Source of the DNA: an uncultured Erysipelotrichaceae bacterium
GTDB lineage: Bacteria > Bacillota_I > Bacilli_A > RFN20 > CAG-826
Direction: 5' to 3'
Assembly: GCA_902763555.1 (NCBI GenBank)
Contig: CACWSI010000003.1
Location: 64,181-103,515 of the forward strand
Length of the DNA: 39,335 nucleotides
Shown: positions 3 to 19,557 of the stretch, piece after piece
Layout of the letters: each line of letters starts with the position of its first letter
Numbering within the stretch: position 1 is the stretch's first letter
The notes under the pieces: generated by a model
What the model was told of the DNA's origin: nothing
Databases searched by the model: none
Seen by the model: the letters and a program-made list of their open reading frames with translations, nothing else
Translations under genes and position numbers: made by a program

Positions 3-1823
3 ATTAAAAAGCCATCCTTGAAAGATGACTTCTATGCCTCCGTTAACTATGAAAACATTCTTTCTGGTGATGATGGTTCGTTTGGTAGATCTGATTATTT
101 TATTAATCAAGCCCTAAATGATATCTTCTATGGCGATGAAACCATCAATAACGATATTCTTTGGGCTTTTGGTAATTTAGCGACCGAAGGCGATGTTGTA
201 GGTGCCGCTAGCTATTTATCTTCATTCAATTTAGATAATTATTTAAGCAGCAAAGATGCATTTACATCAGCTGCGCCACTTTTCACAATCAATAAAAATG
301 GTGATAGTTATGAAATCGGTGTTGATGATGGCTACTTCAATGGCAACTACAATAGTTTATCTATGATTTGGCTTTATAGCACATATCAAGGTGGTGAAGT
401 CTTCGCTCAAGAATTATTCAAAGTCCTTGATATCTTAGATAACGCTTTTGGTGTTTCCACAAGCGAAGCTGAAAGAAATGCCGCTGGTGATATTGAATAT
501 GATTTCATTAGCGCTGCTTATTCCCACTACAATGGTGGTGCAACTGGTTATGAAACCAATGAAATTCCATGGGCTCCTCTTAAGAGCGCTTTATTAGATT
601 TAGGTGTCGCTGAAGATGCTACGATTTGGATTCCAAATCACTATGATTCTGTTTTCTACAATATCTATGAAAATTATGCTGTTAATAAACGTGTAGCATT
701 AGAAAACCTTATCAAAATAAGAATTGAATTTGCTTACCGTTTCCTCGCTGGCATTTACAATTACAAAAACCTCAACGTGAGCCTAACAACAATGTATAGA
801 TATTCTAATGGTCTCATGTTTGGTGATGAAGCTTATATCCATTACTATGATGGCGATCGTGCCTTAACAAAAATAGCGACTGCGGCGTTCCCAATTCTTT
901 ACGAACAATCATATCTTGCCACTCAAGGTAGTGAAGTAATTAAAGAGAAAGTCGCACAATTAATCACTGACATCTTAGGTGGCTTTGAAGAAATCTTCGC
1001 GGAAGAAACATGGCTTAGCTATTCCACAAGACAAAGAGCGATTAGAAAAATCCAAATGATGAAATTTGAATCATGCTATCCAGATTTCTATAAAAACTTC
1101 ATTGAAATCAAAGATGATGACTTAGACACTGTTACTGGCACTACCTTGTTAAATCGTTACCGTGCCGCTTATGTTGACACTATTTTCAGTGGTATTTCAT
1201 TGCCAAGTAATGAATGGAGTATGATGCCAACATACACAAATAACGCTTTCTATAGTCCAACAACTAACTCATTCGTTATCCTTAACGGTCTTGTTAGAGG
1301 ATTCTTATATAGCGAAGATACCGAAGTGTTATATGGCACATTAGGTACTGTTATCGGTCATGAAATTACACACGGCTTTGATAGCAGTGGCTCACAATTT
1401 GATGAATATGGTAGACAATCCAGCTGGTGGACTGAGACAGATTGGAACAAATTCCAAACCAAAGTGCAAAAGATGGTCAACTTCTATAACAACATCACTC
1501 TTTATGGTGACACTAAAGCTATTGGTGAAAAGAATAATACCGAAGCAACCGCTGATATGGGTGGTATGAGAGTCATGCTACACTTAGCTAAGAAGATTCC
1601 TAACTTCGACTATGACTTATTCTTCAAATCATATGCTTATGTTTGGTGCAATGCTCCATTTGGCATGGATTATGCTCAAACCCTTAGAGAAGATGAACAC
1701 CCATTCCATTATTTAAGAGCAAATGTCACCTTAGCTCAATTCGATGAATTCGTTAATTTCTACAACATCCAACCAGGCGATGGTATGTACATTCCAGAAA
1801 ACCAAAGAGTTAAAATTTGGTAA
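3..1823 (+). CDS. pepO: M13 family zinc metallopeptidase (neprilysin/PepO-like), 5' end outside window
   Basis: The reading frame is already open at the left edge, so the start and any signal peptide lie outside the window. A TTG at 18 could be called as a start, but it falls inside the conserved N-terminal M13 segment (KDDFYASVN), so the gene is better treated as 5'-partial. The zinc site HEITH is encoded at 1359-1373. The third zinc ligand region EATAD lies at 1542-1556, matching the ExxxD pattern of the family. The C-terminus ends in the typical NIQPGDGMYIPENQRVKIW-like block, ending in Trp as in most M13 enzymes. About 607 residues are visible, close to a complete catalytic domain. Family members cleave oligopeptides on the N-terminal side of hydrophobic residues, in the cytoplasm (PepO) or at the surface. 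Since secreted proteins follow, surface location is possible but not shown. A terminator follows the stop codon. Confidence 0.93.
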   Translation: MKKPSLKDDFYASVNYENILSGDDGSFGRSDYFINQALNDIFYGDETINNDILWAFGNLATEGDVVGAASYLSSFNLDNYLSSKDAFTSAAPLFTINKNGDSYEIGVDDGYFNGNYNSLSMIWLYSTYQGGEVFAQELFKVLDILDNAFGVSTSEAERNAAGDIEYDFISAAYSHYNGGATGYETNEIPWAPLKSALLDLGVAEDATIWIPNHYDSVFYNIYENYAVNKRVALENLIKIRIEFAYRFLAGIYNYKNLNVSLTTMYRYSNGLMFGDEAYIHYYDGDRALTKIATAAFPILYEQSYLATQGSEVIKEKVAQLITDILGGFEEIFAEETWLSYSTRQRAIRKIQMMKFESCYPDFYKNFIEIKDDDLDTVTGTTLLNRYRAAYVDTIFSGISLPSNEWSMMPTYTNNAFYSPTTNSFVILNGLVRGFLYSEDTEVLYGTLGTVIGHEITHGFDSSGSQFDEYGRQSSWWTETDWNKFQTKVQKMVNFYNNITLYGDTKAIGEKNNTEATADMGGMRVMLHLAKKIPNFDYDLFFKSYAYVWCNAPFGMDYAQTLREDEHPFHYLRANVTLAQFDEFVNFYNIQPGDGMYIPENQRVKIW

Positions 1824-5352: not shown

Positions 5353-5766
5353 ATGAATAAAGTATTCTCACAAATTAAAAAATATTGGCTTACAAATCTG
5401 ATCACATTTTTGGTCTCATTAGCGGTTGGTGCAGGTATCTTTTGTATCGTATTTTTTACTCGTGCAAGAAGCATGATTGATGCGATTGATGGCGCCACTC
5501 TAGGTGGGTTAATTGTCTTGCTATTTGGTCTACTCATGATGGTCGCTCATTTCGGTGCTTTTGACTTTATTGTTTTTGGTTTTAAACAGCTAATTGCACT
5601 CATGTTTGCTAAGGATCCAAAAAAGCACGGTCAGTTCACAGATTATCGTGACCAGATGACAGAAAAAAGAGACGCGTCATCTTACAATTTTATCGCTACT
5701 ATTCTCGCGGGATTATTGCTTTCAATAGCGATAATTGTTCTCGAAATTATCTATCATTTAGGCTAA
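5353..5766 (+). CDS. Small polytopic membrane protein, possibly DUF3899-like
   Basis: This 137-residue protein has two N-terminal membrane helices (about residues 15-37 and 47-66), an amphipathic Phe-rich segment (GAFDFIVFGFKQLIALMF), a charged cytoplasmic loop (about 80-110) and a C-terminal helix (about 112-134). The short FDxxxxGFKxL segment followed by a charged loop resembles DUF3899 proteins of Firmicutes and Mollicutes, recalled from memory and not confirmed. The function of that family is unknown. The start ATG has no GGAGG. A TATATA box lies nine bases upstream, suggesting a short or absent leader. The gene sits alone between a terminator and the subtilase promoter. Confidence 0.72.
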   Translation: MNKVFSQIKKYWLTNLITFLVSLAVGAGIFCIVFFTRARSMIDAIDGATLGGLIVLLFGLLMMVAHFGAFDFIVFGFKQLIALMFAKDPKKHGQFTDYRDQMTEKRDASSYNFIATILAGLLLSIAIIVLEIIYHLG

Positions 5767-5825: not shown

Positions 5826-5854
5826 TTTACATGTCTAGCGCGCTCGTGTATTAT
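5826..5854 (+). promoter_or_regulatory. Sigma-A type promoter for the subtilase-binding protein operon
   Basis: TTTACA at 5826-5831 and TATTAT at 5849-5854 are 17 bases apart. An AAAGGAGG ribosome binding site at 5883-5890 precedes the ATG at 5897 by six bases. A TTGACT at 5821-5826 was considered as the -35 but would need a 22-base spacer. Confidence 0.75.
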
Positions 5855-5896: not shown

Positions 5897-8800
5897 ATGA
5901 AAAAACTTGGATTCATTCTAGGCGCCACATGTGCAGCAGTCATTGCTGTCGGTGGTTTAACAGCGTCTCGTCTTGCTAAACAGCCAGAAAGAGATGCGAG
6001 AATTATTGTTGAAGTGAATCGCAATGTGAAGTCTCTCAGTAAGCAAGGCATTAGAAATTCCCAAGATGCTGTCCTTAACAACATCATGGAATATGCCACA
6101 ACAAACGTCAGACGCACAAAATGCTACAATGAGTTGAATAACGCCTTTGTTCTTGAAGTGAATAGTAACGATATCGAACGTATTCGTGAAGTTCCAGGTG
6201 TTGCCAGTGTTACTCTTGATGAAATGCACTGGAAACGCACTTACAATAACGATGGCTTTATTGCTCTCGATGCAGAAGGTCGAGGAAGTGAAGGTTCTGT
6301 TGAAGAAAACATTTCCGCAGCCACAATGCACAAACCAGATGACACCTTCGATGGTGAAGGTACTCTCGTTGCCATTCTCGACAACGAATTCCACCTTAGA
6401 GGAAAAACCGACACCACAGAAGAATGGCATCACGAAGTTTACAATGCTTTGGATAGTAATGTTGGTGTCAGATACACTTATAGAACAATCAAAAACATTG
6501 TTGGTTTGAACGCTGCACCTGTTGATGCATACGTACCTGGAGAAGGATATGAAGGTTCTAGATACTTAAATAGTAAGGTTCCATTCTACTTCGACTACGG
6601 TGGTGAAAGTTTATCCTATGGTAAACCAGGTGAGCCAAAATATGATGTCCACAGTGACCTCTCATATCACGGCTCCCACGTTTCTTCCATTACCGCCGCT
6701 AATGCTCCTACTTATAAGGGCATTGCGCCAAAAGCTCAATTAGCATTAATGAAAGTCTTCACAGACTACAATGCTAAAGATGGCATTGGTGAAACAATTG
6801 GCTTAACCAACTCTACAGGTGCTTACGATACAGTTATCTTATCCGCACTTGAAGACTGCATTAAGTTAAAAGTTGATGGCATCAACATGTCATTAGGTAG
6901 TGACTTAGATGACTTCGATGGTGATTCTATCACATTAAGAACATTAAAAGACCTTGCCAATGCAGGTATCTTATCCGCCATTTCCGCTGGTAATAGTGGT
7001 AAGTCCTCATTCAGTTCCACAGGTGCTTACGCCAACTGGACAACAAGCATGGTGGAAACAGGCATTATGTCAAGTTACGCAAATAACGCTAACACAATGA
7101 CCATTGCTTCTGGCCATCCAACCAGAATCTTCTATGAAAACGCTTTCACAGTTCCAGATGAAAAAGAAGGACAAAAGAATATCGCTTTCGAAGATCAAAT
7201 CGTTAATAGACCAGGCATGGAAGAAGATTATAGAGATGAATTCCGTGTCAGCGACTTATTCGCAAATACTCAATCTCTTGAATATCAATATGTTCCAGGT
7301 TTCGGTACGTTCGCCGATTATGGTACATTAGATTGCCAAGGCAAAATTGTCGTCGTCAATCGTGGTAGTACATCATTCGCTGATAAATACGCCACAGCCG
7401 TTGGCCAAGGTGCTAAAGCCTTAGTTATTATCAATAACGACCCAACTGCTTCCGACTTCAATTTCCGTTGTAGTTTCGGTGATGGCTTCAACCCAACAAT
7501 GCCATGTGCTCTCGTCTTATTCAAAGATAAAGAATACTTTGTCAACCATCCAAATGGTCAATTCGGTATCATTCACAAACAAGTTAGTGATAACCCAAAT
7601 GCTTACACAACAAGCTCATTCTCCACTGATGGTGCCACATTTGACTTAGATCTCAAACCAGAAATCACTGCTCCTGGTGACAATATCAAAGGTGCTGTCC
7701 CAGAACATGCAATGACAAGCTTAACACAAGATGAAATTCACTCAGCTGAATACTGGCACAGATGTTACCAATACTTAAGTGGCACATCCATGTCCGCTCC
7801 TAACTATGCTGGTGCTCAATCTGTCGTTCTTTCTAAGGTTGCTGGTCCAATCTATCACAATGCTAAATTAGCTGGTAGAACAACCACACAAGCTGAAAAA
7901 GATCAAGTTGCTGAATTTAGAAGAACAGTTGATATGAGATTAATGTCCACAGCTGATCCAATGACAGATGGTGAAGGTAATGAAAACCCAGAAACCAATG
8001 TCAGAAGCCTTATCTCACCAAGAATTCAAGGCGCTGGTATGGCCGATTTAGCGGGTGCATTAAGCACAGATGTCTATCTTGAAGGTTTAGATTTAAAAGG
8101 CAACAAGATTGGCAAAGCCAAAGTTGCTTTAAGAAATAATCCAGACATCGCTAAAGGTGATATCAAATTATCATTCTTAGCTCATAACGAAAGCACAGAA
8201 ACAAGAAATTATGACGTGACATTAACCGTCATGAGACCAGCTCTTGCTCAACCAAACAACATCGTCACAAAAGACTATAACTTCAAAGGTGAAATTGATG
8301 ATATTAAGAACCTTTCTGGTATGGCCTACTTTGATACTGATGTTAGAAGAATGGAAATTGCTTCTGGTTCTATCGCTTATAAAGATGCCGTTAAGGCTTC
8401 TAAAGATATTGAATACTATGCTACAGAAGAAGCTTGGAAAGCTGACCAAGCTGATATCGCAGCAGGTAAACAACCAACTAGAAAGACAGTTATCAAACAA
8501 GGTTACTACTACAATGCCGCTAATGAAGGTGTTGATTGGCAACCTCTTCCAAGCTTTACAGCGCAATCCACTAGGGATGTTGTTATCGCTGAAGTTAAAG
8601 GTCAAACAGTGAGTGTTGCTCCAGGTGAAAGCACAGTCATAATTAATCCTTATTCCTTAACTGCTGATGCTAAGAAGAAAATCTTAGATAACTACGAATA
8701 TGGTTGTATGATCGAAGGTTTCGTTACTTTAAAGAGTAAAGATAACAAAGCCGACCTCTCCATCCCATATTTAGGCTTCTATTCAGGTGCTGATAAGAAT

Positions 8801-10045
8801 GCTGATGCAACTTATGACAATGCTCCTGTTACAGAACCATTCAGCTTTGAAAAAGATATTACTAAAGTCTATCCATCAGACTTAGTTAATGACATTACTA
8901 AATCCTTAATTGGTAAAGATAACGTTAACTTCGAATCTATGATCGTTGCTGGCTATGCTGAAAAACCAGAAAAGATCAACAAAGATTCCATACTCACAAA
9001 CGATCAATCATTCGACCGTTTAGCAGACTTCTACAAAGTCGGTACAAGACCAAACGATGGTGAATATACCGCTACCCCAAGTAACGATATCTATCTTGGT
9101 AATGCTAAAAAATCCAACATCATGATTATTCAACAATTCATGTTGAGATCCGTGAAGGAAAACTATTTCACCATTACAAGAAAAGACAATAACCAACAAG
9201 TCTATGCTTCTGCTTTAGCAGATAGCTTATTCGGTGATACCGCTGGCAAGTGGGCCTTATATAAATCCCACGTTGATGCTGGTTACTTATCCGCCGGTTA
9301 TGTCGCTCATAGAGCCTTTGCCGTTGTCCCATTATTCAATGAAGTAACAGGCGAAGCGTTCGCAAGTGGTGAATACGAACTCAAGTTCAATTACCAATTA
9401 GCCGGTACAGGCAATTGGGTCAGCAAATCTTACACCATCCACATTGATGGTGAGGCTCCAGTTGTTGAAACAATCACTGAATACAAAGACGCTAATGGTG
9501 TCAATCAAGTGAGAGCTTACTTCAAAGAAGAAAAGATGTCCCACGCCTTCATCGGTAACTACATCGTCGATGTCAACTTCGATGCTGACAAGAACATGTA
9601 TTACGCTGAAGCTACAAAAGAATTCGTTGATAACGCTATCAATGAAATGAGTGGTGATGGCGACAAACGTTTATTCATCGGTGGCGTTGACTACGCTAGA
9701 GGTACTTCTGGCTGTGTCGTTCACTTCAATAACTACGATAACTTCTTATTAGGTTATCAAATGATCCAAGGTGCTGATCTTGATACCTTCATTGACTTCA
9801 GAGTTGATGCAGATAACAAAGTCACATTCGTGGACCTTCGTACAGGCGAAAACGTTCAAATCGATTCTAGATACGTAATTTCTAACTTCGATGCAGTTAT
9901 TGATTACAATCCAGACGAACAACCAGTTGAACCAGCCAAGAAAGGCTGCAACGGTGCAATTGCCTCATTATCACTCATTATTGGCGCTCCTGCCTTATTG
10001 GGTGCCTCATTACTATTCTTTAAAAAGAAAAAAGGAGGTAAATAG
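5897..10045 (+). CDS. Cell-surface subtilisin-like serine protease (S8, C5a peptidase/lactocepin type)
   Basis: The 1,382-residue protein has a signal peptide (residues about 1-25), an I9-like propeptide (about 35-110) and an S8 domain. Catalytic residues are Asp162 (AILDNEF), His258 (YHGSHVSS), the oxyanion Asn366 (SAGNSG) and Ser631 (SGTSMSAP). A protease-associated (PA) insert lies between Asn366 and Ser631, around residues 430-570, as in lactocepins and streptococcal C5a peptidase. Fn3-like domains follow from about residue 730. The C-terminus has GCNG (Cys1351), a hydrophobic helix and KKKK, a cysteine-containing membrane anchor and not LPXTG. It should degrade proteins outside the cell. 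The next gene encodes a peptide-binding lipoprotein whose ribosome binding site is formed by the last codons of this gene, indicating co-expression. The residue after the catalytic Asp is Asn, not the common Ser/Thr. Confidence 0.95.
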   Translation: MKKLGFILGATCAAVIAVGGLTASRLAKQPERDARIIVEVNRNVKSLSKQGIRNSQDAVLNNIMEYATTNVRRTKCYNELNNAFVLEVNSNDIERIREVPGVASVTLDEMHWKRTYNNDGFIALDAEGRGSEGSVEENISAATMHKPDDTFDGEGTLVAILDNEFHLRGKTDTTEEWHHEVYNALDSNVGVRYTYRTIKNIVGLNAAPVDAYVPGEGYEGSRYLNSKVPFYFDYGGESLSYGKPGEPKYDVHSDLSYHGSHVSSITAANAPTYKGIAPKAQLALMKVFTDYNAKDGIGETIGLTNSTGAYDTVILSALEDCIKLKVDGINMSLGSDLDDFDGDSITLRTLKDLANAGILSAISAGNSGKSSFSSTGAYANWTTSMVETGIMSSYANNANTMTIASGHPTRIFYENAFTVPDEKEGQKNIAFEDQIVNRPGMEEDYRDEFRVSDLFANTQSLEYQYVPGFGTFADYGTLDCQGKIVVVNRGSTSFADKYATAVGQGAKALVIINNDPTASDFNFRCSFGDGFNPTMPCALVLFKDKEYFVNHPNGQFGIIHKQVSDNPNAYTTSSFSTDGATFDLDLKPEITAPGDNIKGAVPEHAMTSLTQDEIHSAEYWHRCYQYLSGTSMSAPNYAGAQSVVLSKVAGPIYHNAKLAGRTTTQAEKDQVAEFRRTVDMRLMSTADPMTDGEGNENPETNVRSLISPRIQGAGMADLAGALSTDVYLEGLDLKGNKIGKAKVALRNNPDIAKGDIKLSFLAHNESTETRNYDVTLTVMRPALAQPNNIVTKDYNFKGEIDDIKNLSGMAYFDTDVRRMEIASGSIAYKDAVKASKDIEYYATEEAWKADQADIAAGKQPTRKTVIKQGYYYNAANEGVDWQPLPSFTAQSTRDVVIAEVKGQTVSVAPGESTVIINPYSLTADAKKKILDNYEYGCMIEGFVTLKSKDNKADLSIPYLGFYSGADKNADATYDNAPVTEPFSFEKDITKVYPSDLVNDITKSLIGKDNVNFESMIVAGYAEKPEKINKDSILTNDQSFDRLADFYKVGTRPNDGEYTATPSNDIYLGNAKKSNIMIIQQFMLRSVKENYFTITRKDNNQQVYASALADSLFGDTAGKWALYKSHVDAGYLSAGYVAHRAFAVVPLFNEVTGEAFASGEYELKFNYQLAGTGNWVSKSYTIHIDGEAPVVETITEYKDANGVNQVRAYFKEEKMSHAFIGNYIVDVNFDADKNMYYAEATKEFVDNAINEMSGDGDKRLFIGGVDYARGTSGCVVHFNNYDNFLLGYQMIQGADLDTFIDFRVDADNKVTFVDLRTGENVQIDSRYVISNFDAVIDYNPDEQPVEPAKKGCNGAIASLSLIIGAPALLGASLLFFKKKKGGK

Positions 10046-10049
10046 TAAG

Positions 10050-13037
10050 ATGAAAAAATTTACATTAGGACTTTTAGCAGTTAGCTTCCTTTCATTAGGC
10101 GCTGTCGTTGCTTGTGATGATGGCCACGGCTCTAGCGCTATTGCTTGGGACTTCACAATTTCCTTAAGTAATGGCTCAAACGTCATGAACAAAGGTGAAG
10201 AAGCTCACATCAACATCGATGAAATCGGCGGCAACCCAGAAGATGTTAGAGAATTCACTTATACTTGTTTAGATTCTAAAGTTGCTTCTGTTAACGCAAA
10301 CGGTACAGTTACTGCCTTAGAAAAAGGTAAAACAGTTATTGCTGTTAAAGAAGGTAAATCAGAATTAACTAGATCCTTAGAATTAACAGTTATCGATGCT
10401 TCTCCAGCAGATGGTGGCTTCAACTATGCTTCCGCTTCTGGTAAAACCGCTATTGAAAAGAGGACCGAAATCCTCGGTGCTCTTGAAAAGAACGCGATGG
10501 ATAATCACTTAACAGGTATCACCTTATTCGAAAATGGTGGCTATGTTAAATACAAATCACGTGTTAACTTACCAACAACTAACTACATTACTGGTTATGG
10601 TTTCGGCTTATTAAGTGAAGGTTCCTTAAAAGAACCAATGGCCGAAGAAACAGAATCAGCTTATAAGAATTATTTACACACTGCCTCTTCCTCTGACCCA
10701 CACATGGTTAACGCTAGAGACAATGATGGTAGCCAAGTCTCCGACTTAGAAGGCTACATTACCTCTTCATATTGGGGTACCAAAATGAACGATACCAAAG
10801 ACGGCTATGTCTGGTATCCAGTTCTCGCTAAAGACACAGTTAAATTCAATGGTGTCGATCGTGCAAACGATAGACCAATCCCAGTTTATAATGGCACTGA
10901 AGTCAAACCAGACGAAGATCCAAACCCATTAGGTCTCTATAGTACATGGAGAATCTATGTTAAAACTGGTGCAGATGGTCTTAAATACCGCTACAGCGGC
11001 ACACCATGGGATGGTGTTGATTACGATCATAGACCAGTCGCTATCGAAGACTACGAATTTGCATTCCGTAACCTTCTTACTGGTTCTCATGGTTTATCCC
11101 GTGGTTCCCAAATCGCTTCTGACCAAACATATGGTATCGTCGGCGCTCAAAGATACTATAACAACACAAATGTTAAAGATATGTCCGATGAAAAGGCCTT
11201 AAATGTTTGGAATAACATGAAGAGCAAAGGTGAATTAGGCCTTGTTACTGGTCACGATGAAACAAACGGTGATTTTATTCAATTAACATTATTAAATCCT
11301 ATTGATAGATTTACCGCGATGTACACATTATCTTCTAGCTTATATTCTCCAATCCCAGAAGACTTCATCCGTGCTCTTGGTTATAAAGCTGGTACACCTG
11401 AAGATAAAATTGGTTTCATTAGAGATGGTTCTAAGAGATATGGCACATTCAATGATAACAGTAGTGTTCCTGCCGCCCACCAAAACAAGATTTGTGACTC
11501 AGTTCTCTCTGTTGGTCCATACATGCTTGAAAGATGGGACAAAGACATTGGTATCTTCTACAAGAAGAATACTGAATGGAATGAACCAGGTAGATATAAC
11601 ATCGAAGGTATCAAGATTCTCATTATCAGAGCTGCTCAACAATCCCCAACAGCCATCTATGACCGTTTCAAACAAGTCGGTGACTTAGATAGCTGTGGTA
11701 TTCCATCTCAATACATTGATGTTGAAGTTGGTCAACCAGACGTTTTCCAAACAAAAGGTAATTCCACCTTCAAACTCAACGTTAACTCTTGTACACAAGA
11801 AATGTGGGATACATTAAATAAGAAATTATGGAAACACACAGATTCTGATAGATACATCTGCAAACCTTGGATGAGTAACGACAACTTCTTAAATGGTTTA
11901 TTCTACTCCATTGATAGAAAAGCATTCGCTGCAAAACAAGGTTCACAACCATCTATCAACTATTTCTCTGATTCATACTTAAGTGACCCAGAAAATGGTG
12001 TTTCTTATAACGATACAGAAGCCCATAAGAACGCTATCGCGGCATATCAAACATATGATACCGATGGCAATCCAACTTATGGTTATTCCAAAGATAGAGC
12101 CGTTTCTTGCTTCAAAGCTGCGGTTAGAGAATTAGTCGCACAAGGCAAACTCAAATACGGTTCTGTTGAAAAACCAAACAAAATCTCCATCAACATTTGG
12201 TGGATGTATCAAAGTGATATCAAACAATACGGCGAAGATATCGAAAAATACTTCACAGATGCCTTCAATGATCCAGATGTTTCTGGCGGCACAATCAAGC
12301 TTGAACTCGATCAACAAGCCGTTACAGTTTGGGACAAAGTTTATACCGATCACTTACAAGTTGGTAAGTTCGACTTAGGCTTTGGTGCTATTTCCGGTAA
12401 TACCTATAACCCACTTAACTTCTTAGAAGTTTTAAAGAGTGATAACTCTTCTAGCTTCACTCTTAACTGGGGTACAGATACATCCGTTATCTCCAAGACA
12501 AAACCATTAATCTATGATGACAAAATGTGGTCATTCGATGCTTTATGGTCAGTCGCAGATCACGGCGGCATCGTCAAGAATGGTTCTGTTGCTAAGACAG
12601 TTGAAATCAGCTACGTTGATTCCTTAAGAAATGACTTCTATAACGGTTTAGACTTCTCCGTGTGCACTAAGTTTATTGATGCTGAAGCGGCAACAATTGA
12701 CCTCACACGTGTCCAAATCTACGTTGTCGGTTTCGGTGGCGTCGATGTTGAATTCACAAAGAGCGTTAACGAAAAAGGCGAATTGGTCGCGAATATCCAC
12801 TTATCTCCAGAATTAGCGGCTCAAATCAATGCTGATATGAGACATGCTAACCACATGGACGACATGGATAAATATCCAACATTATGGAACGAAACACCAT
12901 TCACCTATGCTAACTACAATAAGTATTGGAATATTGATGTGTTCTATAGTTTAGCCATCACTTCCGAAGGCCAACAAGGCACACCAACCGAAGCTTATGT
13001 TACTGCTGCGAAGAACGCTGACGACTGGAAAGATTAA
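10050..13037 (+). CDS. oppA: Oligopeptide-binding lipoprotein (SBP family 5, OppA-like) with N-terminal Ig-like domain
   Basis: The start chosen is the ATG at 10050 because it gives a lipoprotein signal (lipobox VVAC, Cys22) and follows the GGAGG at 10034-10038, which lies within the end of the protease gene. The frame is open further upstream, to 9891, but that part only overlaps the protease. The 995-residue product is almost twice the usual 530-600 residues of OppA. Residues about 30-115 form a Big_2-like domain (DSKVASVNANGTVTALEKGKT). The SBP_bac_5 fold follows, with the family signature region VAIEDYEFAFRNLLTG at about 330-345 and late conserved blocks around 850-990. It should capture peptides at the cell surface and deliver them to the OppBCDF complex encoded from 14557. 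It is co-transcribed with the surface protease and not with the permease. Confidence 0.92.
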   Translation: MKKFTLGLLAVSFLSLGAVVACDDGHGSSAIAWDFTISLSNGSNVMNKGEEAHINIDEIGGNPEDVREFTYTCLDSKVASVNANGTVTALEKGKTVIAVKEGKSELTRSLELTVIDASPADGGFNYASASGKTAIEKRTEILGALEKNAMDNHLTGITLFENGGYVKYKSRVNLPTTNYITGYGFGLLSEGSLKEPMAEETESAYKNYLHTASSSDPHMVNARDNDGSQVSDLEGYITSSYWGTKMNDTKDGYVWYPVLAKDTVKFNGVDRANDRPIPVYNGTEVKPDEDPNPLGLYSTWRIYVKTGADGLKYRYSGTPWDGVDYDHRPVAIEDYEFAFRNLLTGSHGLSRGSQIASDQTYGIVGAQRYYNNTNVKDMSDEKALNVWNNMKSKGELGLVTGHDETNGDFIQLTLLNPIDRFTAMYTLSSSLYSPIPEDFIRALGYKAGTPEDKIGFIRDGSKRYGTFNDNSSVPAAHQNKICDSVLSVGPYMLERWDKDIGIFYKKNTEWNEPGRYNIEGIKILIIRAAQQSPTAIYDRFKQVGDLDSCGIPSQYIDVEVGQPDVFQTKGNSTFKLNVNSCTQEMWDTLNKKLWKHTDSDRYICKPWMSNDNFLNGLFYSIDRKAFAAKQGSQPSINYFSDSYLSDPENGVSYNDTEAHKNAIAAYQTYDTDGNPTYGYSKDRAVSCFKAAVRELVAQGKLKYGSVEKPNKISINIWWMYQSDIKQYGEDIEKYFTDAFNDPDVSGGTIKLELDQQAVTVWDKVYTDHLQVGKFDLGFGAISGNTYNPLNFLEVLKSDNSSSFTLNWGTDTSVISKTKPLIYDDKMWSFDALWSVADHGGIVKNGSVAKTVEISYVDSLRNDFYNGLDFSVCTKFIDAEAATIDLTRVQIYVVGFGGVDVEFTKSVNEKGELVANIHLSPELAAQINADMRHANHMDDMDKYPTLWNETPFTYANYNKYWNIDVFYSLAITSEGQQGTPTEAYVTAAKNADDWKD

Positions 13038-13053
13038 TAAGGAGGGTTAAACC

Positions 13054-14376
13054 ATGAAAAACAAAAAAGTTTTATTCCTCACTTCATTATTAGCCGTTGC
13101 TACTTTGGCTGGATGTGGTGCAAAAACCTCATCCCAGCCTAAAAATGACGGCGTTCCAACATCAATGATTATTCCAGAAACTTCTAAAATTGAAGCGGTT
13201 GAAAACAATAAAGTTACCTATCCAAGCGAACTTCTCGTAAATCACAGAATCGCTGCAATGATGGTCAACGAAACACTTCAATTAGAAGCAACAGAACAAT
13301 TCGGATATGATGCTAAAAACGTCAAATTTGAAGTAAAGGATGCAACAATTGCCACTGTTGACGAAAACGGTCTCGTTACCGGTCTAAAAGCTGGCGAAAC
13401 AGAAATCGTTGTTACTGACAAGAATAATCCTGAATTCAAAAGAACAGTGCCTGTGTCCGTTTATGACCCAGTTGATTCCTCTGATGTTAAAGGCATCACA
13501 GATCCTTTAAAGAGCTATGAAGCCGAACATCCAGTGACTGAAGTTGTCCAACGTAAGAGAATTACTAGAACTTTCTCTAAACGTCCATATGTTGCTCCTG
13601 AAGAACCTGAAGAAGGTGCAGAAGGTACGGAAGAAGGGGCTGAAACAACCGTTTCAGAGAATACAGAACCATATGTTCAATTCTCTCGTGACTATTCTGA
13701 CGAAATGATGGTGTTCAGTGTTGATGATGCCTATTTAAGAATTTTGGAAACAGACTCTGAAATCAGAACTACCGATGGTGGTGTTGATTTCACAAACTAT
13801 GACTGGATCTTCCATACAAATAGATACTTCGACACACTCGTTTATCACCAAACAGGTGACGTTAAGACATTCTATTCTGCTCCAACCCAAGATTTCATGG
13901 ATGGCGAAAGAAAAGTGCCTTTATATGAAATCTTAGATAACTTATTCACCGTTGGTCATACTTTCTTTGAAAATCAATTAGACAATGCTGGCTTCAAAGA
14001 TATCATCGATATCGCTGAAAATGATTATGGCAACGTTGAAGATAAGAAAGTTGGTTCAATCGGTGATGGTTCATTATTCGTTCATGGCGTTCTCACCTTC
14101 AAAGATAGCCTTGCTGATAACGATGATGAAAAGAACTATGGTATTCCAGTTGGTACACCAACTCCAACAACCCAAGATTCAACTTGGATTATTAGAAACA
14201 ATAGAGTTGAAGGCATCTACTTCTACCTCGTCCAGAATTACGTTATCGACGATTATGAATATCAAATGATTATGGATATCGATATTCAGATTGATCCAAT
14301 CAGTGCTGATAGACATGAAATTTACGTTCCTATCAGAGATGAATATCAACAAGTTGATAGATTGTTCGATATCTAA
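13054..14376 (+). CDS. Lipoprotein with Big_2-like Ig domain, unknown C-terminal domain
   Basis: The 440-residue protein starts with a lipoprotein signal peptide (lipobox LAGC, Cys21) and is preceded by GGAGG at 13041-13045. Residues about 60-137 form a Big_2-like domain, with the diagnostic IATVDENGLVTGLKAGETEI pattern, the same type as in the preceding binding protein. A Glu/Gly-rich linker (about 188-205) leads into a 230-residue C-terminal part that I do not recognise, rich in Asp, Tyr and Phe and with no visible catalytic motif. It is the third gene of the protease/peptide-binding operon, 16 bases after the binding protein, and is followed by a terminator. An accessory role in surface peptide capture or in anchoring the protease is inference from context only. 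Confidence 0.87.
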   Translation: MKNKKVLFLTSLLAVATLAGCGAKTSSQPKNDGVPTSMIIPETSKIEAVENNKVTYPSELLVNHRIAAMMVNETLQLEATEQFGYDAKNVKFEVKDATIATVDENGLVTGLKAGETEIVVTDKNNPEFKRTVPVSVYDPVDSSDVKGITDPLKSYEAEHPVTEVVQRKRITRTFSKRPYVAPEEPEEGAEGTEEGAETTVSENTEPYVQFSRDYSDEMMVFSVDDAYLRILETDSEIRTTDGGVDFTNYDWIFHTNRYFDTLVYHQTGDVKTFYSAPTQDFMDGERKVPLYEILDNLFTVGHTFFENQLDNAGFKDIIDIAENDYGNVEDKKVGSIGDGSLFVHGVLTFKDSLADNDDEKNYGIPVGTPTPTTQDSTWIIRNNRVEGIYFYLVQNYVIDDYEYQMIMDIDIQIDPISADRHEIYVPIRDEYQQVDRLFDI

Positions 14377-14394: not shown

Positions 14395-14430
14395 AAAAGG
14401 ACTGCTTAATGCGGTCCTTTTATTTTATTT
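14395..14430 (+). terminator. Rho-independent terminator ending the protease/binding protein operon
   Basis: AAAAGGACTGC and GCGGTCCTTTT pair over 11 positions (one G-U) around the loop TTAAT, followed by T-rich sequence. It separates the binding-protein unit from the permease/ATPase unit. Confidence 0.9.
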
Positions 14431-14471: not shown

Positions 14472-14540
14472 AATACCATTTGCCATTCTTGAAGAATGGC
14501 TGGTTTTGTGGTATATTTAGGAGCCACTTAATTTAAGTGG
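14472..14540 (+). promoter_or_regulatory. Structured 5' leader of the oppBCDF mRNA
   Basis: Two structures precede the ribosome binding site. First, an inner perfect 8-bp hairpin (GCCATTCT/AGAATGGC, 14482-14500) sits inside an outer ATACCA/TGGTAT stem (14473-14478 with 14509-14514). Second, a perfect inverted repeat CCACTTAA-T-TTAAGTGG (14524-14540) directly abuts the AGAAAGGAG ribosome binding site at 14541-14549. The second could be an operator for a dimeric repressor or a hairpin controlling ribosome access. No known riboswitch class was recognised and there is no T-run typical of an attenuator. Confidence 0.55.
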
Positions 14541-14556: not shown

Positions 14557-15612
14557 ATGTTAAGGTATTCATTAAAAAGACTCTTACTTGCATTTGTAAC
14601 CGCCTTTATTATTCTTACACTTACTTTTATCTTGGTTAAGGCTCTTCCTGTAACACTCAAGATTTCAACCAGTGCTGGCGAAAGAATGGGTTTCTATGAT
14701 TCTCAAGTCGCTCTTGGTTATTTTAGTGTCATCGTTAAACCCGAAACCGAACATTATCAACCAACGATGAAGATTATTGAAAGCTTCGTTGTCGATAAAA
14801 AAGAGTATTTCTACTATCCAAGACCAATTCTTGAACAATATTTTTCATGGCTCGGTAACATTTTCACTAAATGGGATTGGGGCACATCCACATCCTTAGA
14901 ATTAAATGCTTCCGCGATTAGACTTATTGGTAGACGTTTGCCAGTGTCAATGTCCATCAATATTATCGTTGTTTTGGTCTCTGTTCCATTAGGTATCCTT
15001 CTCGGTATCTATGCTGGTTTAAAGAAAAACACATGGATTGACCATACCATCTCCACATTAATCATGATCTTCGTTTCCATTCCTGGATTCGTCGTCATTA
15101 CCTTCTTAATTTTCTTCTTCTCTTATCAAACAGGTTGGCTCCCACCTTCATGGCCGAGCTCTACCGCTCCATTAGGCACAAGAATCTTAGGCTATATCAT
15201 TCCTGTCCTAGCTCTATCTTTCGGCTCTATCTGTGGCTATGGTAGAGGTGTTAGAGCGGAACTTTGTGAAGTTATGTCTAGTGAATATTTATTACTTGCC
15301 AGAACAAAAGGCTTAACAAAGAACCAAGCAATCATCCGTCATGCTTTAAGAAATGCCTTCGTACCAATTCTTCCAAGTATTCTTGCTGAATTCATTGGTA
15401 TTTTAGGTGGTTCCATCGTTTTGGAAAGATTATATGGTATTCCAGGCGTTGGTAACATTTACTTTGAAGCGTTAAATAATACACCAAGAGACTATAACGT
15501 CTTAATGGTTGACATGGCTATCTTTACCATTATTGGTTTATTAGCCGGCATCCTTTTTGACTTATCATATGGATTCATTGATCCAAGAATTAGAATGGGG
15601 GCGAAGAAATAG
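14557..15612 (+). CDS. oppB: Oligopeptide ABC transporter permease OppB
   Basis: This 351-residue inner-membrane protein has an N-terminal helix (about residues 8-28), an extracytoplasmic segment, and a BPD_transp_1 core of five more helices. The cytoplasmic EAA-like loop (EYLLLARTKGLTKNQAIIRHALRNAF, about residues 245-270) contacts the ATPase subunits, and the C-terminus has the family's DLSYGFIDPRIR ending. The ribosome binding site AGAAAGGAG at 14541-14549 fixes the start. With OppC it forms the channel for peptides delivered by the binding protein at 10050. It is the first gene of the four-gene operon and its length is only slightly above the usual 310-340. Confidence 0.96.
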   Translation: MLRYSLKRLLLAFVTAFIILTLTFILVKALPVTLKISTSAGERMGFYDSQVALGYFSVIVKPETEHYQPTMKIIESFVVDKKEYFYYPRPILEQYFSWLGNIFTKWDWGTSTSLELNASAIRLIGRRLPVSMSINIIVVLVSVPLGILLGIYAGLKKNTWIDHTISTLIMIFVSIPGFVVITFLIFFFSYQTGWLPPSWPSSTAPLGTRILGYIIPVLALSFGSICGYGRGVRAELCEVMSSEYLLLARTKGLTKNQAIIRHALRNAFVPILPSILAEFIGILGGSIVLERLYGIPGVGNIYFEALNNTPRDYNVLMVDMAIFTIIGLLAGILFDLSYGFIDPRIRMGAKK

Positions 15613-15614
15613 TT

Positions 15615-17762
15615 ATGTTAGAAGATAAAGATTTCGAATTCGTTGAAGAAGCCCCTGTTACTAATGAAGAAGTTCCAGCGGAAGAAGAGATTACCGCTGA
15701 TGACTTCACTTTAACGGAAGTTGATTCCACAATTCACGAACAAAAGTTCCAAACAAAACCAACAACATTTACTAAAGACGCCTTCAGAAGATTCAAAAAG
15801 AACAAATCATCTGTGGCCGCGACTTATATTTTGGGTACTTTAGTGCTTTTATCAATTGTTGTTCCACTTATTGATAGAAACGATATTCAAAATTCTCACC
15901 CAGAAGAAATTTTCCTTTCACCAAAATTATTTAATGCTGGTACAGGCTTTTGGGATGGTACTGAAAGATATTCAAACATCGCTGTTGATATTTCTGAAAT
16001 GCCAAACGCCACCACAGAAGAAGAAAAACAAGAACACTGGTGGCCAAGTCCAGACGTCTATACTCAACGTTCTGCGATTTCCAAAAAGAAATTCACTGAT
16101 TTGACATATGTTAACAGCCTTTCTAACTTAGGTACATTCGGTAAAGAAGGCTATGTGCAATTTGGCTTTGATAGAAATGAACTCAAAGGCAATGACTTCG
16201 TTGAATTCTCTTCGCAAGAAATTCCAGAATTAGAATTAACTGCAGATAGCTTATATCTCAGTGCCTTCGATACATATGACGCTGAAAAAATCCAAGCTAA
16301 AGAAGGCAAAGAAGATTTTGGTCTTCCAACCAATTATGTCCTTGGTGATGTCGCCTTATTCTTCTCTTATTATGAAGGCGATACAAAACAAGAAGTGCAA
16401 TTAGTGGACTACGCTAAAGTACACAATATTGGTAGTGCGGTTGCCTCTTATAAAAAAGACAAAGTTGATATCGCTAATATCATTACTACACAAACTGGTA
16501 AAACAACATTTGAAAAAGCACGTTTTGCCGTCAAAATGGCGACAGCCGGTGAAGACACTCTTGTTTGTAACTTAATCGGCGCTCTTGCTTTTGAAAGTAA
16601 CTTTGCGGAAGAAGAAACAAACGCCATTTTTGCGGATATGTCTTTCACTGATGCCACTAAAGCATTAACCAAAACAGCAGGTGATAAATTTGCCTATTGG
16701 AGTAGCACTGGCCTTAAAGCTATCTATCTCTCTAAAGCCTATTTCTGCTCATTTGTTTATGATACATATGAAGCTAAATACGGTATTGCCGTTGATAAAA
16801 GCTTCTCCATTAAGGACCTTTTAAGATATCAAAAGAATGGTTGGATGTCATTCAAGACTCCTCTTGGTGATTCCACAATTCAAGACCTTGACTCATTAGG
16901 CTTCTATCTCGATGTTAATAACTTTACATGCCAGATTTTAGATGCTGAAAAATGTCCTATCACCAAACCATTAACTATTGATGACTTTGTTTATCCAGAG
17001 CCAAACGATAGTGGTATTGCGGTCGGTGAAATCGTTTGTAAAGCAGAAGTTTGCCGTTATAAGAAATATGGTTATTCATCGATGCCAAGATTCCTCTTGG
17101 GCACAGATGAATCTGGTAGAGATATGCTTAAGTATGTTTTCGATGGTTTAAGAACATCCTTAATCGTCGCGACATTAACATTCCTCATCTGTTTCACATT
17201 TGGTGTTATTTGGGGTTCCATCTCTGGTTATTTCGGTGGCAACGTCGACTTAATCATGGAAAGAATTACCGATATCTTAGGCCGTATCCCATTCATGGTC
17301 TTAATGACATTGCTCATCCTCCACTGGGGTTCATCCTTACCAATGTTTGTTATGGCATTATGTATGACCGGTTGGATTGGTACTGCTTCCTTAACTAGAA
17401 CGCAGTTCTATAGATTTAGAGGTCGAGAATATGTTCTTGCCTCACGTACATTAGGCGCAAGTGATGCTAGATTAATCGCTAAGCACATCTTCCCTAATGG
17501 CTTAGGTACAATCATCACTGCTGAAGTTTTGATTATTCCAGGCGTTATCTTTAGTGAAGCCAACATCGCCTACTTAGGCTTAGGCTTACAAAACGTTTCA
17601 TCATTAGGTGTTATCTTATCCGATAACCAAAAGTGGTTGAGTGTTCACCCATACTTATTATTATTCCCATCCATTATCATCGCGTTATTAATGATTTCGT
17701 TTAACTTATTTGGTAATGGCTTGAGAGACGCTGTTAACCCAAGTTTGAAAGGAGAAGACTAA
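15615..17762 (+). CDS. oppC: Oligopeptide ABC transporter permease OppC with a large extracytoplasmic insertion
   Basis: The 715-residue protein is more than twice the usual about 300 residues. An acidic N-terminal tail (1-45) precedes the OppC_N segment (TFTKDAFRRFKKNKSS) and TM1 (about 66-87). The conserved periplasmic motif GTDESGRD is at residues 496-503, followed by the normal BPD_transp_1 core with EAA loop (REYVLASRTLGASDARLIAKHIFPNG). About 400 residues lie between TM1 and GTDESGRD, where typical OppC proteins have about 40-60. By topology this block is outside the membrane, so it could dock the long binding protein or replace part of its function. It shows no recognised domain. Two bases separate its ATG from the oppB stop codon. 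Confidence 0.95.
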   Translation: MLEDKDFEFVEEAPVTNEEVPAEEEITADDFTLTEVDSTIHEQKFQTKPTTFTKDAFRRFKKNKSSVAATYILGTLVLLSIVVPLIDRNDIQNSHPEEIFLSPKLFNAGTGFWDGTERYSNIAVDISEMPNATTEEEKQEHWWPSPDVYTQRSAISKKKFTDLTYVNSLSNLGTFGKEGYVQFGFDRNELKGNDFVEFSSQEIPELELTADSLYLSAFDTYDAEKIQAKEGKEDFGLPTNYVLGDVALFFSYYEGDTKQEVQLVDYAKVHNIGSAVASYKKDKVDIANIITTQTGKTTFEKARFAVKMATAGEDTLVCNLIGALAFESNFAEEETNAIFADMSFTDATKALTKTAGDKFAYWSSTGLKAIYLSKAYFCSFVYDTYEAKYGIAVDKSFSIKDLLRYQKNGWMSFKTPLGDSTIQDLDSLGFYLDVNNFTCQILDAEKCPITKPLTIDDFVYPEPNDSGIAVGEIVCKAEVCRYKKYGYSSMPRFLLGTDESGRDMLKYVFDGLRTSLIVATLTFLICFTFGVIWGSISGYFGGNVDLIMERITDILGRIPFMVLMTLLILHWGSSLPMFVMALCMTGWIGTASLTRTQFYRFRGREYVLASRTLGASDARLIAKHIFPNGLGTIITAEVLIIPGVIFSEANIAYLGLGLQNVSSLGVILSDNQKWLSVHPYLLLFPSIIIALLMISFNLFGNGLRDAVNPSLKGED

Positions 17763-17763
17763 T

Positions 17764-19557
17764 ATGGAAAATAAACAAATTGTATTATCCGTTAAAGACT
17801 TACGTGTCAACTTCTCCACAGACCATGGTTATGTCCAAGCGGTTAGAGGTGTTTCATTCGATTTATATAAAGGTGAAACATTATGTATCGTTGGTGAATC
17901 TGGTTCAGGTAAATCTGTTACCAGTAAAACCATCATGGGTATCTTAGCCGCAAACGGTCGTATCGTTGACGGTTCCATCATGTATGAAGGTGAAGATTTA
18001 ACCAAGGTTTCTGAAGATGAATTCCATCGTATCAGAGGCCATAAGATTGGTATGATCTTCCAAGACCCATTATCATCTTTAAACCCAATCATGCGCATCG
18101 GTAAACAAATTACCGAAGCCATGTTATTAAATGGTAATCACTTAAAGAAGATGAAAGAAGAACTCGTTGCCGAAGAATTCGTCGCTTATAAGAACGCAAT
18201 TACCGCTTATAAGAGCGAACTCAATAAAGGTAAAGAAACTGTCAAATTCTTAAAGAGTGAAAAGAAAAAAGAAATTGAAAGAATCAAAACCATTGTTAAA
18301 AACGAAACCGATGGTGCAGTTTATGCTTTGAAATTAGACTATGGTCTAGAAAAAGTTCACATTAAGCATAACTATGATGAATTACTCGCTAAAGAAAACG
18401 AAAAATTAGCCGCTTTCAAAAACGGTCAACAAATCGAAAATAGCGAAGAAACCGTCGAAGATGTTAATAATAAGATTGCTTCCTTAAAAGAACAAAAGTC
18501 AGCAGAATTAAAAGCCGCTGATGAAAAGTATGCCGCTAAGAAAGCAGAAATTCTTAAAGAAGCAGAAGAAAAGAAAGCTGCTAATAAAGAAGAATTAGCG
18601 AAAGTTAAAGCGGACTTCGACAAGAAAATTGCCGAAGCTCAAGCTCATAAGAACGCTAATAGTAAAGAATTAACAGCGAAATATAAACCAATCATCGCCG
18701 AAGCTAAAGCTAAATATTTAGCGAAGAATAAAGAAGCTACTGCTAAAGTTGCGGAAGTTAAAAAACAATACCGCGCTGAATACGAACAAGACCTTAGAGA
18801 TGGCGTTGATAAAAAGGCCGCTAAGGATAAGTACATCGCCAAGATTAAAATTACCAAAGCCGAAGCTAAACGTAGAGCTCTTAAGGTTATGGAAGAAGTC
18901 GGTATCCCATTCCCAGAAAGAAGATTCAGACAATATCCATTTGAATTCTCTGGTGGTATGAGACAACGTATCGTTATCGCAATTGCGTTAACCGCTAACC
19001 CAGATATCTTAATCTGTGACGAACCAACTACAGCCTTAGACGTGACCATTCAAGCGCAAATCCTTGAATTAATTAACCGTTTAAAAGCGGAAAGAAACAT
19101 CTCTGTTATCTTCATTACTCACGACTTAGGTGTTGTCGCCAATATGGCGGACCGTGTCGCAGTTATGTACGCTGGTAAAATCGTTGAATATGGTAAAGAA
19201 GAAGAAATCTTCTATGATCCAAAGCATCCATATACATGGGCGTTATTAGCCTCTATCCCTGATGTTGATAGTAAGGAGAGATTGGAAGCCATTCCTGGCA
19301 CTCCACCAAACCTTGTCTTCCCACCTAAGGGTGATGCCTTCGCCTTACGTAGTAAATATGCGATGAAGATTGACTTCAAGAAAGAACCTCCATATTTCAA
19401 GGTTAGTGATACTCACTATGCCGCTACTTGGCTATTAGACCCAAGAGCGCCAAAAGTGGAAATGCCTGCTATTGTTAAGACTCGTATTGAGGCCTCATTA
19501 GCAGCGCATAAAGCTAGAGAAGCTAAAAAAGCAAAAGCTAAGAAGGAGGACAAATAA
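17764..19557 (+). CDS. oppD: Oligopeptide ABC transporter ATPase OppD with a coiled-coil insertion
   Basis: ABC ATPase with Walker A GESGSGKS (residues 44-51), Q-loop Gln100, signature SGGMRQR from Ser396, Walker B ILICDE (Asp419, Glu420) and switch His453, plus the C-terminal oligo_HPY peptide-transporter domain (HPYTWALLASIPD onward). The 597 residues exceed the usual about 330. The excess is mainly a block of about 240 residues (about 126-363), rich in Lys, Glu and Ala, between Q-loop and signature, that is, in the helical subdomain. It looks like long charged helices or a coiled coil. A basic Ala/Lys tail ends the protein. All catalytic motifs are intact, so the pump should be active. It hydrolyses ATP on the cytoplasmic face with OppF. 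The gene starts one base after the oppC stop. Confidence 0.96.
   Translation: MENKQIVLSVKDLRVNFSTDHGYVQAVRGVSFDLYKGETLCIVGESGSGKSVTSKTIMGILAANGRIVDGSIMYEGEDLTKVSEDEFHRIRGHKIGMIFQDPLSSLNPIMRIGKQITEAMLLNGNHLKKMKEELVAEEFVAYKNAITAYKSELNKGKETVKFLKSEKKKEIERIKTIVKNETDGAVYALKLDYGLEKVHIKHNYDELLAKENEKLAAFKNGQQIENSEETVEDVNNKIASLKEQKSAELKAADEKYAAKKAEILKEAEEKKAANKEELAKVKADFDKKIAEAQAHKNANSKELTAKYKPIIAEAKAKYLAKNKEATAKVAEVKKQYRAEYEQDLRDGVDKKAAKDKYIAKIKITKAEAKRRALKVMEEVGIPFPERRFRQYPFEFSGGMRQRIVIAIALTANPDILICDEPTTALDVTIQAQILELINRLKAERNISVIFITHDLGVVANMADRVAVMYAGKIVEYGKEEEIFYDPKHPYTWALLASIPDVDSKERLEAIPGTPPNLVFPPKGDAFALRSKYAMKIDFKKEPPYFKVSDTHYAATWLLDPRAPKVEMPAIVKTRIEASLAAHKAREAKKAKAKKEDK

What the first reader, a model, noticed from the sequence alone, without database searches (positions are those of the whole stretch)
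5897..14376. Surface subtilase and peptide-binding lipoprotein in one transcription unit
The protease, the OppA-like protein and a Big_2 lipoprotein are 4 and 16 bases apart, with the second ribosome binding site inside the protease gene. The permease and ATPase genes have a separate promoter. This looks like a cut-and-capture module at the surface whose expression is set apart from the transporter core.
Basis: partly seen in the sequence, partly recalled or inferred. Interest (0 to 1): 0.55.

Follow-up and report, generated by a model that had tools for sequence, protein, structure and literature searches.

The report
Surface protease joined to peptide importer
In a group of small-genome gut bacteria, the gene for a large surface protein-cutting enzyme sits in one conserved unit with the gene for the protein that catches peptides for import, together with a little-known membrane protein that accompanies this importer in many other bacteria of the class.

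Summary
A 1382-aa subtilase (5897-10045), an OppA-type lipoprotein (10050-13037) and a Big_2 lipoprotein (13054-14376) lie 4 and 16 bases apart. The oppA ribosome site is inside the protease gene. A terminator (14395-14421) and a separate promoter precede oppBCDF.

Gene order is conserved: protease and OppA are direct neighbours in 18 of 35 genomes with a strong OppA match (8 genera, own genome included); 6 more have protease-DUF3899-OppA. Of 31 S8 hits of this type, 21 share a contig with oppB, all within 20 kb; of 49 other S8 hits, 1.

Sequence and predicted fold support the roles: nearest solved relatives are C5a peptidase and cell-envelope proteinases, and peptide-bound OppA. Peptide hand-over is untested.

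Corrections: a terminator before oppB also occurs without the protease (9 of 11 loci), so split expression is no mark of the module. The Big_2 gene is its most variable member. DUF3899 as an Opp accessory is the newest point.

The parts
18..1823 (+). C-terminal part of a 963-aa lipoprotein with an M13 (neprilysin/PepO-type) peptidase domain; the gene begins left of the window
   Evidence: Pfam M13 E 1.4e-38; full ORF in L180:613-3504; M13-motif ORFs also in loci L036, L038, L041-L045, L077
2603..5197 (+). 864-aa lipoprotein with Big_3 domain, upstream neighbour; relation to the module unsure
   Evidence: similar gene upstream of DUF3899 in L036, L038, L039
5228..5253 (+). terminator-like hairpin closing the upstream lipoprotein gene
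5353..5766 (+). DUF3899 small membrane protein (137 aa; three hydrophobic stretches by eye), candidate Opp accessory
   Evidence: PF13038 E 5.6e-10; linkage to Opp; alignment A2
5826..5854 (+). promoter-like TTTACA-17-TATTAT before the protease unit; TTTACA with TATTAT or TATAAT in five of six relatives printed, weaker -10 in L039
5884..5891 (+). ribosome binding site of the protease gene (AAGGAGGT)
5897..10045 (+). subtilase (I9 propeptide, S8 with PA insert, weak Fn3_5, C-terminal GC motif + hydrophobic span + lysines)
10032..10039 (+). ribosome binding site of oppA inside the protease gene
10050..13037 (+). OppA-type solute-binding lipoprotein, 995 aa, with N-terminal Big_2 domain and extra C-terminal region
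13054..14376 (+). LP3: Big_2 lipoprotein with a beta-rich domain of unknown role
14395..14421 (+). intrinsic terminator after the three-gene unit
14483..14499 (+). 17-bp palindrome CCATTCTTGAAGAATGG over the -35 of the oppB promoter (possible operator)
   Evidence: identical in 10 of 10 genus loci held with this OppB type; absent in the two genus loci with another OppB type (L073, L075)
14489..14517 (+). oppB promoter-like site with TG before the -10
14524..14540 (+). hairpin just before the oppB ribosome site; pairing kept while letters change
   Evidence: not found by RNAalifold
14557..15612 (+). OppB permease
15615..17762 (+). OppC permease with an insert of about 380 aa between its N-terminal span and the permease domain
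17764..19557 (+). OppD ATPase with a long insert; nearest curated family is OppD of the minimal mycoplasma
19560..20789 (+). OppF ATPase

Best explanation
The locus is a nutritional protein-breakdown and peptide-import island of a small-genome gut bacterium of class Bacilli. Shown: a large secreted subtilase of the cell-envelope type, with its catalytic residues intact and a C-terminal membrane anchor, is encoded just ahead of a lipid-anchored binder with the oligopeptide-binding fold, in an order kept over several genera; the importer core follows behind a terminator and its own promoter. Inferred: the protease cuts proteins near the membrane, OppA (probably made in excess over the permease) catches the peptides, and OppBCDF, with DUF3899 as an accessory membrane subunit or an assembly or regulation factor, imports them for use as amino acids. 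Overlapping ribosome site and stop/start spacing suggest coupled translation that keeps protease and binder in step. The Big_2 lipoprotein is an optional surface partner.
For: Gene order: of 35 genomes (of 95 searched, own included) with an OppA match below E 1e-20, 18 have S8 directly before OppA, 6 have S8-DUF3899-OppA (G089 across a contig break), 11 have no S8 there. Opp-linked S8 form one clade apart from five 2400-aa S8; of 31 such hits 21 share a contig with a strong OppB, all within 20 kb; of 49 other S8 hits 2 share such a contig and 1 is within 20 kb. D162, H258, N366 and S631 (catalytic by the S8 motifs, recalled) invariant in 23 of 23. Nearest solved: C5a peptidase 2e-64, cell envelope proteinase A 7e-58. 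OppA model, pLDDT 88.5, matches peptide-bound OppA 5kzt, DppE, AliB and AmiA at Z about 20; Cys22 of the lipobox invariant in 28 of 28. OppB/C nearest Opp3B/Opp3C, OppD/F nearest the minimal-cell Opp. A second surface peptidase (M13) upstream. Terminator before oppB; oppA ribosome site in the protease gene.
Against: No experiment; protease substrate and OppA ligand unknown. Proteins of the same fold that bind metals, opines, sialic acid and agrocinopines stand lower in the same lists. 11 of 35 genomes have this OppA without a neighbouring S8, so the protease is not needed for transport. In 4 of 5 S8-DUF3899-OppA loci a terminator-like hairpin follows S8, and in 10 of 16 DUF3899-S8 loci one precedes S8, so DUF3899 and S8 are often not co-transcribed. 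G056 has DUF3899 and S8 facing oppFD. OppB, C, D and F score below the NCBIfam equivalog cut-offs. The relatives are unnamed; the four named ones are uncultured assemblies.
Confidence: 0.58

Rival explanations
1. The subtilase is a processing or defence enzyme (cuts surface lipoproteins, peptide toxins or host proteins such as complement, as C5a peptidase does) and shares the operon only for co-regulation at the envelope.
For: Its nearest solved relatives are C5a peptidases and chemokine proteases, which act on host signals; the neighbouring lipoproteins could be its clients.
Against: Linkage to an oligopeptide importer kept through rearrangements; a second surface peptidase in the same island; cell envelope proteinases are among the same solved relatives.
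Confidence: 0.25
2. The genes share one control for nitrogen shortage without any hand-over of products between protease and OppA (not exclusive with the best explanation).
For: The oppB promoter has its own conserved palindrome; the terminator before oppB exists without S8 too, and hairpins separate S8 from DUF3899-OppA in 4 of 5 loci of that order.
Against: Ribosome-site overlap and 3-4-base spacing tie protease and OppA closely in the main lineage; this cannot separate co-regulation from hand-over, so the rival stays open.
Confidence: 0.35
3. DUF3899 is a bystander, kept next to Opp by chance of ancestry.
For: All genomes are related; one ancestral placement could persist.
Against: It sits after oppF, before oppA, or divergent from oppB or oppA in different families, yet was linked in 50 of 50 inspected loci over 16 family codes, and has no match in 38 of 41 genomes that lack this Opp type.
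Confidence: 0.2

Closest known systems
Proteolytic system of lactic acid bacteria (PrtP/CEP + Opp + PepO)
   Same: A subtilase of the cell-envelope type, an Opp importer and an M13 peptidase; in Lactococcus an intact pepO generally goes with a complete oppACBFD operon (PMC6365430, passages).
   Different: In L. lactis SK11 prtP/prtM lie on one plasmid and oppABCDF2-pepO2-pepF2 on another (PMC2827410, passages); here protease and OppA are direct neighbours, the M13 enzyme is a lipoprotein, and there is no LPXTG anchor.
Streptococcal C5a peptidase (ScpA/ScpB)
   Same: Best solved-structure sequence match; S8 with PA insert. From memory: scpB is followed by lmb, a binding-protein lipoprotein gene.
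   Different: lmb is a metal binder (recalled); here the neighbour has the oligopeptide-binder fold; the anchor differs.
Opp of mollicutes / minimal cell (MMSYN1_0165-0168)
   Same: OppD and OppF match these families best.
   Different: Scores are below the equivalog cut-offs; I saw no report of a subtilase next to opp there in the listings and passages looked at.
MYXO-CTERM sorting tag
   Same: Tripartite C-terminus: invariant Cys in a GC motif, hydrophobic span, basic end (PMC11980579, passages).
   Different: Different class, lysines in place of arginines, no NCBIfam hit for the protease.

Membership tests
Cell-envelope proteinase / C5a peptidase type subtilase (S8) | S8 domain with complete D-H-S triad and oxyanion Asn | tested here: met
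   Pfam S8 4.5e-27; D162, H258, N366, S631 invariant in 23 of 23
Cell-envelope proteinase / C5a peptidase type subtilase (S8) | PA domain inserted in the catalytic domain | tested here: met
   PA at 467-540 inside S8 153-674
Cell-envelope proteinase / C5a peptidase type subtilase (S8) | Fn3_5 domain after the catalytic domain | tested here: inconclusive
   25.4 bits, cut-off 27.6
Cell-envelope proteinase / C5a peptidase type subtilase (S8) | LPXTG sortase anchor | tested here: not met
   C-terminus is KKGCNG + hydrophobic span + lysines; cell-envelope proteinases without such an anchor domain exist (PMC8037685, passages), so it is likened to the type, not filed as a sortase substrate
Oligopeptide-binding protein OppA (SBP_bac_5) | SBP_bac_5 domain and lipobox Cys | tested here: met
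   1.1e-11; Cys22 invariant in 28 of 28
Oligopeptide-binding protein OppA (SBP_bac_5) | Fold of peptide-bound OppA | tested here: met
   predicted model; Z 20.6 to 5kzt, 445 aligned, rmsd 6.8
Oligopeptide-binding protein OppA (SBP_bac_5) | Binds oligopeptides | not testable with these tools
   needs protein
Opp ABC importer | Two permeases and two ATPases of Opp type in one operon | tested here: met
   below equivalog cut-offs
Opp ABC importer | Oligopeptide uptake | not testable with these tools
   needs a living strain
MYXO-CTERM / myxosortase | NCBIfam model match | tested here: not met
   no family up to E 0.1 for the whole protease
MYXO-CTERM / myxosortase | Invariant Cys, hydrophobic span, basic tail | tested here: inconclusive
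   15 of 15 aligned tails keep the Cys, but these were chosen for having the tail; 10 of 26 S8 relatives listed lack a Cys tail
LolA-like lipoprotein fold for LP3 | Half-barrel fold match | tested here: inconclusive
   C-terminal domain best Z about 8, porins and an ependymin-like protein alike, at background level

The most novel reading that the evidence does not exclude
DUF3899 is an unrecognised sixth component of an Opp oligopeptide importer spread across class Bacilli, and in this lineage the importer also carries its own membrane-tethered protease, so that cutting, catching and import happen in one assembly whose protease and binder are made by coupled translation.
Probability: 0.35. 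Interest if true: 0.68.

Novelty: new variant of a known kind. Interest (0 to 1): 0.5.

Why it matters
Proteolysis plus peptide import is classic in dairy bacteria, but there the protease and importer genes seen in the papers are apart. A conserved protease-binder unit in uncultured gut Bacilli would be a compact form of the same idea and a possible marker for protein-feeding small-genome bacteria. The DUF3899 link gives a testable role to a family for which no paper was found in the searched library (terms DUF3899, and PF13038).

Tried and rejected
DUF3899 against solved structures: nothing (best E 0.3). LP3: the Big_2 part is clear (Z 12.9), the rest is at background level, so no role is claimed. 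NCBIfam gave no family for protease, OppA or DUF3899. Rfam: 0 matches in the window. Hairpin before oppB: RNAalifold found no consensus structure. A count on a stem that I named gave 72% paired cells, 15 cells changed on both sides and a covariation score of 0.284, each reached by 0 of 500 shuffles; the best slid control reached 50% and 0.217; two of the five measures (pairs with a change on both sides, further pair types) were at shuffle level. The alignment is only partly in register. Palindromes before the protease gene: 4 of 22 rows under p 0.05, not pursued. CPBP proteases (candidate tail processors): 20 of 21 genomes, with or without the tail, so none is singled out. Paper searches: seen as listings; passages seen of PMC7301438, PMC12306168, PMC11980579, PMC6365430, PMC8037685, PMC2827410. 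In what I saw nothing describes a subtilase-OppA unit or DUF3899; the library lacks most subscription journals and all preprints.

Rows left out: A1 used 18 of 20 LP3-like sequences (two Big_2-only hits dropped); A2 38 of 48 DUF3899; A3 28 of 34 OppA (the split OppA of L036 among those dropped); A4 23 of 27 S8. The OppB tree left out the distant OppB types except two outgroup rows; its label-change count printed nothing and is not used, and L080's label is a guess because its upstream is not held. In one search the Opp-linked S8 were set by similarity to the window protein and tree place, and strong OppB means E below 1e-60. The 20 class-wide loci were picked by me to span families, not at random. 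Odds: the best explanation went from 0.62 to 0.58 after I recounted the hairpins between S8 and DUF3899.
Full report
Where it lies. The window is part of a 1.145-Mb, 82-contig genome, 85% complete. The four named relatives found are uncultured assemblies titled Bacilli, Bacillales or Erysipelotrichaceae; one title names a water deer omasum. Published work on gut lineages RFN20 and RF39 models oligopeptide import followed by PepF, and RF39 is described as highly reduced with many auxotrophies (PMC7301438, PMC12306168; passages). Whether this genome belongs there was not tested.

The observation. The OppA start is 10050, not the ORF start 9891. The protease gene ends ...AAAAAAGGAGGTAAATAG and oppA starts 4 bases on. 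In the other S8-OppA loci a like site lies in the last protease codons or just past the stop, and in L048 and L051 stop and start overlap. Hairpins with a T run: none in the protease/OppA and OppA/LP3 gaps scanned (overlapping genes were not scanned); one in 11 of 12 scanned gaps where LP3 is next to OppB (L049 lacks it); loci with further genes in that slot (L045-L048, L050) were not scanned there. Where OppA is next to OppB without LP3, 11 of 17 have such a hairpin; of these 17, the 11 loci without a neighbouring S8 have it in 9 (L054 and L056 lack it). So a stop between binder and permease is common to this importer. Against one common unit elsewhere: between S8 and DUF3899 a hairpin is present in L058, L063, L064 and L067 and absent in L066, and between DUF3899 and S8 it is present in 10 of 16 loci, the window not among them (all).

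Conservation. OppA matches below E 1e-20 occur in 35 of 95 genomes, own included. In 18 of these, of 8 genus codes, the S8 gene is directly upstream of OppA; in 5 (G040, G080, G082, G086, G091) DUF3899 lies between, and G089 shows S8-DUF3899 at one contig end and OppA at the start of another; in 11 no S8 lies there, one of them (G062) cut by a contig edge. LP3 follows OppA in 17 of the 18, at 19-79% identity in the alignment; in G036 an ORF without BLAST similarity to LP3 takes the slot. The named record L035 shows the full order too. Five of 16 genus genomes lack this OppA or keep only a weak hit (G003, G007, G009, G010, G012); G003, G009, G010 and G012 still have the S8, in G009, G010 and G012 on a contig with DUF3899.

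Not chance. Among PF00082 hits in 95 genomes, 31 belong to the Opp-linked type: 21 share a contig with a strong OppB and all 21 are within 20 kb; the other 10 sit on contigs without one. Of 49 other S8 hits, 2 share such a contig and 1 is within 20 kb. The Opp-linked S8 are one clade (100/100) against five 2400-aa S8 proteins. The order S8-DUF3899 is found on one main branch of that tree and also in G040, which falls on the other. In the OppB tree S8-less loci stand between S8 loci, so either one old link with losses or more than one joining is possible.

The proteins. Protease: I9, S8, PA, weak Fn3_5, invariant catalytic residues, nearest solved C5a peptidase and cell envelope proteinases. 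The GC tail is present in 16 of 26 relatives listed; the others end in plain hydrophobic spans or, in L092, without a clear one. OppA: SBP_bac_5 with a Big_2 domain and a further C-terminal region; model pLDDT 88.5; matches to peptide-bound OppA, DppE, AliB and AmiA at Z about 20 over residues 190-840. LP3: Big_2 plus a beta-rich domain without a clear match. OppC has a large insert.

DUF3899. The gene directly upstream of the protease codes a 137-aa membrane protein. In 95 genomes DUF3899 and a strong OppB occur together in 51, OppB alone in 3, DUF3899 alone in 3 (Fisher p 2e-19, which ignores relatedness). Of these six, G089 does show DUF3899 by a profile built here, and G053 and G093 are weak hits. 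Of 59 DUF3899 hits, 44 share a contig with strong OppB: 42 within 12 kb, 44 within 25 kb. Class-wide, 155 of 395 genomes have a match, 141 over the cut-off. I looked at 50 of these loci. Of the 30 best-scoring, 28 have an Opp-like gene within about 1.5 kb and 2 (L105, L109) have the S8 gene instead; the 20 others, picked over families, all show Opp-like genes within about 6 kb. Opp-like means a BLAST hit to the window's OppA-F at E 1e-3, so single ATPase hits are weak evidence, but the 20 longer loci show several Opp genes each. The common order is oppB-C-D-F-DUF3899, often overlapping; others place it before oppA or divergent from oppB or oppA. In L093 and L134 my own profile missed it though PF13038 hits there. 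Conserved are a GxFD stretch and a Y...K..KR stretch. That it is a subunit, not an assembly or stress factor, is inference.

Second peptidase. The ORF at 18-1823 is the end of a 963-aa lipoprotein with an M13 domain. M13-motif ORFs lie in the same loci upstream of DUF3899 in L036, L038, L041-L045 and L077. This recalls opp-pepO of Lactococcus (PMC6365430, passages).

Control elements. Upstream of oppB, CCATTCTTGAAGAATGG is identical in 10 of 10 genus loci held with this OppB type; L039 of another genus keeps the arms with a changed centre; L073 and L075, genus members with another OppB type, and the remaining printed loci lack it there. A scan of whole loci with up to 2 mismatches also hit L043, L050 (a second site) and L078 at places not examined. 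The palindrome overlaps the -35. Below the -10 lies a short hairpin whose letters change while pairs stay, though RNAalifold does not find it and two of five measures are at shuffle level. Upstream of the protease TTTACA with TATTAT or TATAAT is kept in five of six relatives printed, L039 having a weaker -10.

What is known and what is new. Protease plus Opp as a feeding route is known from lactic acid bacteria, where in SK11 the genes are on different plasmids (PMC2827410, passages). The joined unit is a new variant of that kind. The DUF3899 link is, as far as the searched library shows, undescribed. Hence interest 0.5.

Noticed in passing
9944-10042; also L178:5094-8486, L178:1516-4818, L179:1103-4498: C-terminal tail KKGCxG + hydrophobic span + lysines, MYXO-CTERM-like, on the protease and on three GH3 glycosidases of the same genome. 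Of 40 genomes searched, 15 of 16 genus members have 1-7 matches at E 0.01 or better, plus G019.
   Followed up: partly
14483-14499: Perfect 17-bp palindrome over the -35 of oppB, identical in 10 of 10 genus loci held with this OppB type: possible operator of an unknown regulator.
   Followed up: partly
14524-14540: Covarying hairpin before the oppB ribosome site (not seen by RNAalifold). Of 25 gene starts of the window checked, arms of 7 or more pairs occur only here and in an A/T-rich stretch before 28042.
   Followed up: partly
L036 (G008) OppA: The closest relative's OppA is split by an internal TAA stop: real decay or assembly error.
   Followed up: no
15615-17762 and 17764-19557: OppC and OppD carry long inserts (about 380 aa in OppC; a lysine/glutamate-rich stretch in OppD); OppC is larger still (840-870 aa) in the other Opp type of L073, L075, L089.
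   Followed up: no
L043, L045, L046, L047, L048, L050: Further genes, several of them lipoprotein-like, lie after LP3 and before OppB (in L043 before the contig end), so that slot varies.
   Followed up: no
20844-22667: Carboxylesterase-family gene 54 bases after oppF on the same strand.
   Followed up: no
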